The notes below the pieces were generated by a model. That model saw nothing but the letters and a program-made list of their open reading frames with translations, made no database searches and was not told where the DNA came from. Source: Acetohalobium arabaticum DSM 5501 (GTDB lineage Bacteria > Bacillota > Halanaerobiia > Halobacteroidales > Acetohalobiaceae). Taken from it: 64,000 nucleotides of DNA. Within the stretch, counting starts at the first letter, position 1. Each line of letters opens with the position of its first letter. The position numbers and the translations under genes are program-made. Location of the stretch: assembly GCF_000144695.1 (NCBI RefSeq), contig NC_014378.1, positions 310,001 to 374,000 of the forward strand. The letters are read 5' to 3'. Below are positions 269 to 56,731 of the stretch, in pieces.

Positions 269-692
269 GATATATTGTTGCAGTTTAGAGTTGATATCTT
301 GCAAACGCTCCAGAAATCAGTCCTAGTCACTCAGCAGTAAATAAATCTTAGTGTTATGATTTAAAGATTCCGCTTTATATGTTAACTATTCTCTCTTGTG
401 GGACTGCTTTAAAGTCGCTTTTTGCAAGATATCAACTAAATTGTGCAAAATTATTTGAGGAAGCGTTTAAAACCAGATTAATGAAAATTCTGTGCTATAA
501 ATAGTCAACATTTCTCTGGAGCGACTCTTAAAACTGACTCGGAACCAGGGATGGTGGAGAGTCAGTTTTTGAGAATGAGTGAGACAGGACGTCGAACGAA
601 TGGCAAGCGTAAGAGATTTGTTGACTATAATCTGCAATATCATGAAAGAAAACTATATTAGTTGCAAATGGAAAGTGACACAATATATCAAT
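266..692 (+). mobile_element. Composite intergenic repeat, copy 1 (MITE-like, modules A+B)
   Basis: A noncoding element of about 427 bp fills the uvrB-uvrA gap. It starts TTGATATATTGTTGCAG and ends GTGACACAATATATCAAT, which are imperfect terminal inverted repeats. Module A holds a 16-bp inverted repeat (AGTTGATATCTTGCAA at about 289-304 and its complement at about 422-437). Module B holds an outer stem (502-517 with 612-627, 14 of 16 paired) and an inner perfect 10-bp stem (531-540 with 559-568). Related copies lie at 8802, 30824, 37019, 47027 and 56793. No convincing protein is encoded. It inserts right at the T run of the uvrB terminator. Function is unknown. Confidence 0.75.
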
Positions 693-8801: not shown

Positions 8802-9388
8802 ATTGATATATTGTTGCAGTTTAGAGTTGATATCTTGCAAACGCTCCGAAAATCAGCCCTAATTAATTAGCAATAAATTATCCTTATAGCTACATTTGAA
8901 AATTATAGCTTATATGATAATCATTTTCTTTTTTGGGCTACTTTACGACGAACAGGACGTTCTAGTGCTTGCGCTGCAACAGGATGTTGCGGTTAGCGCT
9001 AGTGAAGTCGCTTGTTGCAAGATATCAACTAATTGTGCAAAATTATCTGAGGAAGCGTTTAAAACCAAATCAATGAAAATTTTGTGCTGTAATACTGCAA
9101 ATAGTCAATATATGCTTACAGCAACTCCCATTGGTGATAACCATAGTGATATGTCTATTGCAAGTAGTCAACATTTCTCTGGAGCGACTCTTAAAACTGA
9201 CCTGGAGCCACGGACGGCGGAGGGGCAGTTTTTGAGAATGAGTGAGACAGGACGTCGAACGAATGGCAAGCGCAAGAGATTTGTTGACTATAATCTGCAA
9301 TATCATGAATGAACTCATATTGATTATACTAGGCAATTACAAATAAGAGGTATATACGAAAATATTGCAGGTGACACAATATATCAAT
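8802..9388 (+). mobile_element. Composite intergenic repeat, copy 2 (modules A+B, longest)
   Basis: A 587-bp relative of copy 1 with ATTGATATATTGTTGCAG at the left end and GTGACACAATATATCAAT at the right. Module A has an extra GC-rich palindromic stretch around 8945-9000 (GTTAGCGCTA and nearby) that other copies lack. Module B carries the conserved core GACAGGACGTCGAACGAA. Its inner stem (9194-9203 with 9222-9231) has one mismatch and one G-U pair. Open frames across it (for example 8896-9312) are frame accidents, since other copies are not open there. It separates the minus-strand 80-aa gene from lactate dehydrogenase. Confidence 0.75.
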
Positions 9389-30823: not shown

Positions 30824-31357
30824 ATTGATATATTGTTGCAGTTTAGAGTTGATATCTTGCAAACGCTCCAGAAATCAGTCCTAGTCACTTAGCAGTAAAT
30901 AAATCTTAGTATTATGATTTAAAGATTCCGCTTTATATGTTAACTATTCTCTCTTGTGGGACTGCTTTAAAGTCGTTTTTTGCAAGATATCAACTAAATT
31001 GTGCAAAATTATCTGAGAGAAAGCGTTAAAACCCAAACCAATGAAATTTCTGTTCTGTAATACCATAAATAGTCAATATATGCTTTCAATGACTCTCATT
31101 GGTGATAATCACAGCAATATATTTTATTATCAATAGTCAATATGTGTCCAGAGCGACTCTTAAAACTGGCCCGGAATCACGGACGATGGAGGGCCAGTTT
31201 TTGACAGTGAGTGAGACAGGATGTCGAACGAACGGCAAGCGGCGGATACATATTGATTATTCCCGCAATATCATGAATGAGATTATACCGATTATGATAG
31301 AAAATTACAAATAAAGGGTATATACGGAAACATTGTAGAGTGACACAATATATCAAT
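30824..31357 (+). mobile_element. Composite intergenic repeat, copy 3 (modules A+B)
   Basis: A 534-bp copy with ends ATTGATATATTGTTGCAG and TGACACAATATATCAAT. Module A is nearly identical to copy 1. Module B has an outer stem (31132-31149 with 31244-31261) and an inner perfect stem AAACTGGCCC / GGGCCAGTTT (31163-31172 with 31191-31200, loop 18). The same inner stem in copy 1 is AAACTGACTC / GAGTCAGTTT: two positions changed on both sides and pairing was kept. No protein is encoded. Confidence 0.78.
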
Positions 31358-37018: not shown

Positions 37019-37250
37019 ATTGATATATTGTTACAGTTTAGAGTTGATATCTTGCAAATGCTCCAAAAATCAGCCCTAATCAATTAGCAATAAATTAACT
37101 TTATAGCTACGATTTAAAGATTTTACTTTATATGATATTTACCTCTTCTTTTGGGGCTGCTTTAAAGTCGCTTTTTGCAAGATATCAACTAATTGTGCAA
37201 AATTATCGGAGGTGGCGTAAAACCATATTAATGAAATTTTCGTTAAATTG
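37019..37250 (+). mobile_element. Intergenic repeat, copy 4 (module A, 3' truncated)
   Basis: The left end ATTGATATATTGTTACAG and the AGTTGATATCTTGCAA / TTGCAAGATATCAACT inverted repeat are present. Similarity fades about 37250, after the conserved GCAAAATTAT stretch. Module B and the right terminus are missing. It lies right behind rpoN. The right boundary is approximate. Confidence 0.65.
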
Positions 37251-47026: not shown

Positions 47027-47306
47027 ATTGATATAATGTTGCAGTTTTACACTTTCATGATATTGACTATTTATAGTACAGGAATTTCATTGATCTGGTT
47101 TTAAACACGTTTCCTCAGATAATTTTGCATAATTAGTTGATATCTTGCAACAAGCGACTTTAAAGTAGCCCCATAAAAGAAAATGATTAATATATAAAGT
47201 AGACTCTTTAAATCGTATCTCTAAGATTAGTTTATTGCTGATTGACTAGGGCTGATTTTCGGAGCGTTTGCAAGATATCAACTCTACACTGCAACATTAT
47301 ATCAAT
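47027..47306 (-). mobile_element. Intergenic repeat, copy 5 (short form, module A only, intact ends)
   Basis: A 280-bp copy in reverse orientation with perfect 19-bp terminal inverted repeats (ATTGATATAATGTTGCAGT and its complement). Internal TTGCAAGATATCAACT / AGTTGATATCTTGCAA arms are kept. Module B is absent: where copies 1-3 carry it, this copy reads ATAGTCAATATCATGAAAG, joining the two flanks of module B. It may be the basic unit into which module B inserts, or a copy that lost it. Confidence 0.78.
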
Positions 47307-56643: not shown

Positions 56644-56731
56644 TGGTGCCGAAGGTGGGAATCGAACCCACACGAGGCGAGGCCCCATTGGATTTTGAAT
56701 CCAACGCGTCTGCCAGTTCCGCCACTTCGGC
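56644..56731 (-). tRNA. trnL: tRNA-Leu (CAA)
   Basis: An 88-nt type II tRNA on the minus strand with acceptor GCCGAAG / CTTCGGC and A discriminator with encoded CCA. The anticodon stem TTGGA / TCCAA has loop TTCAAAA, anticodon CAA, which reads UUG. A long variable arm is present (GGGGCCTCGCCTCGT region), and the T-arm is GTGGGTTCGATTCCCAC. Confidence 0.95.

What the first reader, a model, noticed from the sequence alone, without database searches (positions are those of the whole stretch)
30824..31357. Intergenic repeat family with compensatory base changes: a possible structured RNA or foldback element
Between copy 1 (266-692) and copy 3, the inner stem changed from AAACTGACTC/GAGTCAGTTT to AAACTGGCCC/GGGCCAGTTT, two base pairs swapped on both sides, with the loop still 18 bases. 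The outer stem also differs (TAGTCAACATTTCTCT type against TAGTCAATATGTGTCC type), yet each pairs with its own partner. The strand core GACAGGACGTCGAACGAA is nearly invariant in all copies. This is what selection on a fold looks like, and I know no named family with these features.
Basis: partly seen in the sequence, partly recalled or inferred. Interest (0 to 1): 0.75.

Follow-up and report, generated by a model that had tools for sequence, protein, structure and literature searches.

The report
Mobile repeats carrying a conserved RNA
Dozens of short intergenic repeats in this salt-loving bacterium carry a ~130-base sequence whose folded three-way-junction shape is kept by matched double mutations in distant bacteria, so it looks like an unclassified RNA (or single-stranded DNA) device spread by small transposon-like elements; its job is not known.

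Summary
The 534-bp repeat at 30824-31357 is a composite with terminal inverted repeats. Its structured part is a 132-nt module, B (31131-31262), found 93 times in the genome, 65 of them above 100 bits. B folds into a three-way junction: outer stem P1, hairpin P2, and hairpin P3 with two tandem G.A pairs. On a structure-blind alignment of 112 members with a tree-based null, 14 column pairs covary significantly, and all 14 are predicted base pairs. B recurs in other Halobacteroidaceae, other Bacillota and Omnitrophota MAGs, often in many copies. No Rfam family reaches its cut-off. The nearest, TwoAYGGAY (RF01731), shares the architecture and GGA loops but matches only one relative, below threshold. 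In genome G324, copies sit in ~190-bp MITE-like elements, most with 8-11-bp flanking direct repeats; in A. arabaticum no target duplication was found and orientation to genes is unbiased. Best reading: an unclassified structured RNA module dispersed by several kinds of MITE-like vehicle. A CsrA-sponge role (proposed for TwoAYGGAY) is possible, but csrA is not enriched (7/9 against 209/299 genomes) and Omnitrophota members mostly lose the GGA loops. Whether it acts as RNA or ssDNA, and what it does, is unproven.

The parts
30824..31357 (+). Composite repeat, copy 3 (A + spacer + B between terminal inverted repeats)
   Evidence: 71 HSPs in own genome; four copies 99-100% identical at unrelated sites
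30824..30840 (+). Left terminal inverted repeat ATTGATATATTGTTGCA
   Evidence: 114 matches of TTGATATATTGTNNCA (<=1 mismatch) against 2 for the reversed-pattern control
31341..31357 (-). Right terminal inverted repeat (reads ATTGATATATTGTGTCA on the - strand)
   Evidence: no target-site duplication found outside it
30846..30996 (-). Module A: inverted-repeat stem AGTTGATATCTTGCAAA; on the - strand it resembles a degenerate B (P1 and P2 5' part kept, P3 lost)
   Evidence: conserved in congener G001; RNAalifold on 51 copies gives few double changes on either strand; R2 only 5.8 bits, E=0.34
31131..31262 (+). Module B: the conserved folded unit (three-way junction)
   Evidence: R2 136.7 bits, E=1.3e-30; covariation
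31134..31149 (+). P1 outer stem, 5' strand
   Evidence: alignment A1 and pair counts
31244..31259 (+). P1 outer stem, 3' strand
31157..31172 (+). P2 hairpin, 5' strand
31191..31205 (+). P2 hairpin, 3' strand
31179..31184 (+). P2 apical loop ACGGAC (AYGGAY type; GGA)
   Evidence: GGA in 55/58 of A1, 46/48 of A4, 28/31 of A5
31207..31233 (+). P3 hairpin with two tandem G.A/A.G mismatches and loop AGGAT (31218-31222)
   Evidence: 6 of 7 pairs change on both sides; loop GGA in 57/58 of A1
499..630 (+). Module B of copy 1
   Evidence: R2 133.3 bits
9162..9293 (+). Module B of copy 2
   Evidence: R2 129.9 bits
56808..56900 (-). Shortened B copy in which most of P2 is missing, upstream of a tRNA on the same strand
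   Evidence: R2 59.9 bits, E=3.6e-12; sequence; tRNA 56647-56731

Best explanation
Module B encodes a structured nucleic acid, most likely an RNA of about 130 nt, of a family not in Rfam 15. It is a three-way junction with a closing stem P1, a GGA-looped hairpin P2, and a GGA-looped hairpin P3 with tandem G.A pairs. It is dispersed through genomes by non-autonomous MITE-like elements: in A. arabaticum inside a composite with ATTGATATATTGT ends, in other genomes inside elements with other ends. Shown: the fold and its conservation, strand polarity, copy number, phylogenetic spread, and target-site duplications in one genome. Inferred: that it is transcribed, that the RNA rather than ssDNA is the selected form, and that it works by binding a protein at the junction and GGA loops (in Bacillota possibly CsrA or a similar GGA-binding protein, as proposed for TwoAYGGAY) rather than regulating its neighbours in cis. 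I put about 0.6 on 'RNA module carried by MITEs', and only about 0.2 on the CsrA-type role.
For: Covariation on a structure-blind alignment with a tree-based null: 14/14 significant pairs are base pairs, in all three helices P1, P2 and P3; pair counts. Strand polarity: G.U cells outnumber A.C cells 66:33 (A1) and 46:7 (A4), and the opposite strand scores 11.9 bits against 136.6. Spread: Halobacteroidaceae, other families of the class, with >=57 matches in G030 and others in G014, G016, G023, G025, G032, G035, further Bacillota G097, G138, G324, Omnitrophota MAGs. Similar flanks around the copies in congeners G032 and G035 point to an orthologous site, where 12 pairs differ on both sides, which argues for selection after insertion. 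Mobility: four near-identical copies at unrelated sites; G324 elements flanked by direct repeats such as TAAAATAAAAT, TAAATAACTT and TATTTCTTCA, rare in shuffled pairings. No orientation bias to flanking ORFs in A. arabaticum (hand count: about 19 same, 18 opposite in tandem contexts).
Against: No expression data. The conserved fold could act as ssDNA during transposition. No TSD at the A. arabaticum ends and no autonomous partner was identified. CsrA: 7 of 9 R2-positive genomes have csrA over the cut-off against 209 of 299 overall, so there is no enrichment; G138 lacks it and G097 has only a sub-threshold hit. Most Omnitrophota members keep the junction but not the GGA loops.
Confidence: 0.6

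Rival explanations
1. B is a single-stranded DNA structure used in the element's own transposition or replication (as hairpin ends are in IS200/IS605 or REP/RAYT systems), not an RNA device.
For: Found mostly as dispersed repeats; repeated unit in G030 is about the size of the folded unit; inverted B pairs are common; a published mobile/repeat motif class is suspected to act as DNA (PMC11109978).
Against: Y1 transposase PF01797 is absent from G001 and G097, which carry the family; vehicles with different ends share the same core; G324 elements leave TSDs, as DDE transposases do, and those act on duplex ends; IS200/IS605 elements do not (own knowledge).
Confidence: 0.22
2. B is a CsrA-sequestering sRNA (CsrB-like sponge), a Clostridial relative of TwoAYGGAY, multiplied by transposition.
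For: GGA kept in both hairpin loops in 54/58, 44/48 and 27/31 sequences; in G324 both loops read CAUGGAUG; PMC4333381 proposes TwoAYGGAY as CsrA-binding and notes two tandem G.A in one stem; csrA is present in A. arabaticum.
Against: No csrA enrichment; multi-copy G097 has no csrA over the cut-off; Omnitrophota members mostly lack GGA loops; TwoAYGGAY membership not met.
Confidence: 0.2
3. B is an ordinary palindromic repeat (protein-binding duplex or bidirectional terminator) whose pairing is kept only because the DNA is palindromic.
For: Long outer stem; intergenic; both orientations.
Against: Strong G.U over A.C bias; conserved unpaired junction and tandem G.A; 11.9 against 136.6 bits for the two strands.
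Confidence: 0.05

Closest known systems
TwoAYGGAY RNA (Rfam RF01731, clan CL00106)
   Same: Two adjacent hairpins with (A)NGGA loops inside a poorly conserved external stem; two tandem G.A in one stem (PMC4333381); occurs in Clostridiales (PMC2864571). L130 aligns over the whole model at 26.9 bits.
   Different: Below the gathering score of 43; no match for the window's own copies; the true TwoAYGGAY of G014 (L137, 51.7 bits) gets no R1 match and only 14.4 bits, E=0.06, from R2 unfiltered; the conserved junction sequences differ.
bcr1-bcr18 repeats of the Bacillus cereus group
   Same: Intergenic MITE-like repeats; some have conserved secondary structure and are transcribed (PMC3446304).
   Different: As published, bcr1 is specific to the B. 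cereus group; B spans several families of Bacillota and Omnitrophota. No sequence comparison was made here.
Mobile/repeat structured motifs, e.g. MRSC-65-2 (PMC11109978)
   Same: Covarying structure, dozens of copies per genome, orientation inconsistent with genes, several phyla.
   Different: MRSC-65-2 is described as a single long stem with UYCCGG repeats; B is a three-way junction. The covariance model was not available for a direct test.
REP/REPIN elements with RAYT (Y1) transposases
   Same: Dispersed structured intergenic repeats, often as inverted pairs.
   Different: REPs are 20-40 bp (PMC3733652 abstract); B is 130 nt; Y1 transposase is not required.

Membership tests
TwoAYGGAY RF01731 | Score at or above the Rfam gathering cut-off (43 bits) | tested here: not met
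   Best 26.9 bits on L130; none on own copies
TwoAYGGAY RF01731 | Two hairpin loops AYGGAY | tested here: inconclusive
   Met in G324 (both CAUGGAUG); elsewhere loop 1 AYGGAY and loop 2 mostly AGGAY; mostly lost in Omnitrophota
TwoAYGGAY RF01731 | Two tandem G.A pairs in one stem (PMC4333381) | tested here: met
   P3, alignments A1 and A4; flanking pairs covary
CsrA-binding sRNA (CsrB/RsmZ kind) | GGA in hairpin loops | tested here: met
   (Bacillota members)
CsrA-binding sRNA (CsrB/RsmZ kind) | csrA in the carrying genomes | tested here: inconclusive
   Present in most, absent from G138 and G054 and sub-threshold in G097; not enriched over background
CsrA-binding sRNA (CsrB/RsmZ kind) | Binds CsrA | not testable with these tools
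   needs a binding assay
MITE (non-autonomous DNA transposon) | Terminal inverted repeats, no ORF, many copies | tested here: met
MITE (non-autonomous DNA transposon) | Target-site duplication | tested here: inconclusive
   Met in G324, not met in A. arabaticum
MITE (non-autonomous DNA transposon) | Autonomous partner with the same ends | tested here: inconclusive
   L049 holds an IS3-like insertion between the element ends, G324 an IS with other ends; no partner found
REP/REPIN-RAYT | Y1 transposase in the carrying genomes | tested here: not met
   none in G001 and G097
Any Rfam 15 family | Match over the gathering score on the element | tested here: not met
   E-value mode

The most novel reading that the evidence does not exclude
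B is the founding member of a cross-phylum class of transposon-borne RNAs with a conserved junction active site (a new self-cleaving ribozyme, or an obligate RNA co-factor of transposition). GGA loops would be a clade-specific add-on, and the module would be swapped between unrelated MITE vehicles.
Probability: 0.13. Interest if true: 0.88.

Novelty: new variant of a known kind. Interest (0 to 1): 0.62.

Why it matters
If transcribed, this is an RNA class with up to about 90 copies per genome that no curated RNA library searched here holds, with a well-supported secondary structure. It would make two questions testable: whether small bacterial transposons carry RNAs that serve their host or themselves, and whether TwoAYGGAY-like RNAs outside Gammaproteobacteria bind CsrA.

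Tried and rejected
Rfam at gathering and permissive thresholds: nothing on the element except sub-threshold TwoAYGGAY. Cis-regulation of neighbours: rejected as the general role in A. arabaticum for want of orientation bias. RAYT/REPIN vehicle: disfavoured. CsrA co-occurrence: no enrichment; proximity of copies to csrA in G016, G032 and G035 (7-11 kb) was noticed but not tested for significance. IS3 in L049 as the autonomous form: looks like an unrelated insertion. The DDE IS in G324: its own ends (CAGGGCAAAATCATTT) and 9-bp TSD enclose a smaller element that has its own flanking repeat, so the RNA is a passenger there. Phages and plasmids: no match, and the specific core pattern is absent from viral contigs; a looser viral pattern gave only an uninformative flood. 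Module A as a second RNA: covariation too weak.

Full report
WHAT IS THERE. The finding lies in a 2,469,596-bp single-contig genome, the length reported for Acetohalobium arabaticum Z-7288T (PMC3035264). The 534-bp unit starts with ATTGATATATTGTTGCA and ends with TGACACAATATATCAAT; these ends occur 114 times in the genome against 2 for the reversed-pattern control. The unit is a composite of module A (a long inverted repeat), a spacer and module B (31131-31262). Copies vary: A+B, A alone, B alone, or two B units back to back.

THE FOLD. Fifty-eight B sequences from this genome and four related ones were aligned by MAFFT without structure. With the structure P1/P2/P3, 93.9% of cells pair and 24 of 42 pairs change on both sides; sliding the partners by 1-3 columns drops pairing to 34-44%. 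P2 exists in many sequence versions (AAACTGGCCC, AAACTGACTC, AAAACAGTTT, AAAAGAACTT, AAGATTAGTCC), each with its own partner. P3 is GU-GA-GU-GA-GAC-AGGAC-GUC-GA-AC-GA-AC, two tandem G.A steps, in which the standard pairs between them switch together. On a covariance-model-fitted alignment of 58 more diverse members, 41 of 42 pairs change on both sides; that alignment leans towards the structure by construction.

SIGNIFICANCE. I wrote an R-scape-like test (G statistic with APC; null by replaying the parsimony substitutions of a FastTree tree at random positions). On A1 it found three significant pairs, all base pairs. On a structure-blind MAFFT alignment of 112 non-redundant members it found 14 pairs at E<0.05, all of them predicted base pairs, spread over P1, P2 and P3.

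STRAND. G.U cells exceed A.C cells 66 to 33 and 46 to 7, and the reverse strand of the same DNA scores 11.9 bits against 136.6. The + strand of B is the selected one. This argues against a plain duplex palindrome but does not separate RNA from ssDNA.

SPREAD. Model R1 found 93 matches in this genome (65 above 100 bits) and matches in all four related Halobacteroidaceae genomes, none in the other family of the order. In the class, G014, G016, G017, G023, G025, G030 (at least 57), G032 and G035 carry it, with a weaker match in G054. The broader model R2 found it in 9 of 299 sampled genomes of the phylum, including G097 (9 matches), G138 and G324 (11 scored, so a lower bound). Because the pattern selected the P3/junction sequence, P1 and P2 pairing is the independent evidence. 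In most Omnitrophota members the junction is kept but the GGA loops are not. Pattern hits in Anaerolinea, Anaerolineae, Moranbacteria and Conexibacter were not confirmed by R2. The specific pattern is absent from viral contigs, and blastn of B finds nothing in phages or plasmids.

VEHICLE. In A. arabaticum four full copies 99-100% alike sit at unrelated sites, so spread was recent, but no target duplication is seen. In G324 the module lies in ~190-bp elements with ends ATG[AG]CTATATACTT; six of seven are flanked by direct repeats of 8-11 nt such as TAAATAACTT, whereas shuffled pairings give about one. Five G324 copies sit inside a 1624-bp IS (ends CAGGGCAAAATCATTT, 9-bp duplication, DDE_Tnp_1 transposase) together with the small element's own flanking repeat, so the RNA element probably inserted into that IS and was carried along. 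G014 elements have yet other ends, and at three sites hairpin-like sequences occur on both sides. In G030 the repeat is about 138 bp, close to the folded unit. So the core is shared and the vehicles differ. Similar flanks in congeners G032 and G035 suggest an orthologous element, in which 12 pairs differ on both sides, 4 on one, 18 are the same and 4 are broken in at least one.

FUNCTION. Orientation relative to flanking ORFs in A. arabaticum is balanced (hand count), so a general cis role is unlikely. The GGA loops suggest CsrA, as proposed for TwoAYGGAY (PMC4333381), and csrA exists here (G000:262089-262241). But csrA is in 209 of 299 phylum genomes and in 7 of 9 carriers over the cut-off: no enrichment, and the sample is small and phylogenetically clumped. 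I therefore keep the general statement (structured RNA module, probably protein-binding, dispersed by MITEs) at 0.6 and the CsrA role at about 0.2.

COMPARISON. TwoAYGGAY is the nearest named RNA. L130 of G014 aligns across the whole RF01731 model at 26.9 bits; the listed E of 2.8 is for 4227 families, about 7e-4 for this family alone, and the comparison was prompted by the loops, so some selection is involved. The true TwoAYGGAY of G014 does not match R1 and gets 14.4 bits from R2 without filters. Membership is not met; kinship is possible. Published mobile/repeat motifs (PMC11109978) and bcr repeats (PMC3446304) show that structured, repeated intergenic elements are a known kind; this one appears to be a new variant. 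Absence from the open-access papers searched is not proof of absence from the literature.

Noticed in passing
window 30846-30996 (module A), - strand: Module A read on the - strand resembles a decayed B: AGTTGATATCTTGCAAAAAGCGACTTTAAAGCAGCCC against G002's AGTTGATATGTTTCAAAGAGCGACTCTTAAAATAGCCC. The composite may be an inverted B pair with one member degenerate.
   Followed up: partly
window 37019-37239 and 47060-47306: Two more copies of the repeat with module A but no B (loci L069, L070).
   Followed up: partly
window 8896-9312: A 138-aa ORF in the list lies inside repeat copy 2 and is probably spurious.
   Followed up: no
L164 1501-1634: In G138 a B element sits between the 3' end of 23S rRNA and 5S rRNA, on the same strand.
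   Followed up: partly
L209, L211, L212, L225, L227 (Omnitrophota): The P2 apical region and the P3 loop carry complementary GC-rich stretches (e.g. CGCGCC with GGCGCG), a possible loop-loop contact; seen by eye only.
   Followed up: no
L150, L153, L156, L157 (G030) and L085, L096, L098 (G003/G004): Sequence beside B reads TTATCCACA or its complement TGTGGATAA in several copies (one base off in L096), which is the DnaA-box consensus.
   Followed up: no
L049 549-1832: An IS3-like insertion lies between two element ends in A. arabaticum.
   Followed up: partly
G016, G032, G035: A copy lies 7-11 kb from csrA on the same contig in each of these genomes.
   Followed up: partly
L130, L206, L207 (G014): Hairpin-like sequences of about 16-24 nt appear on both sides of the elements, as if inserted at and duplicating terminators.
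   Followed up: no
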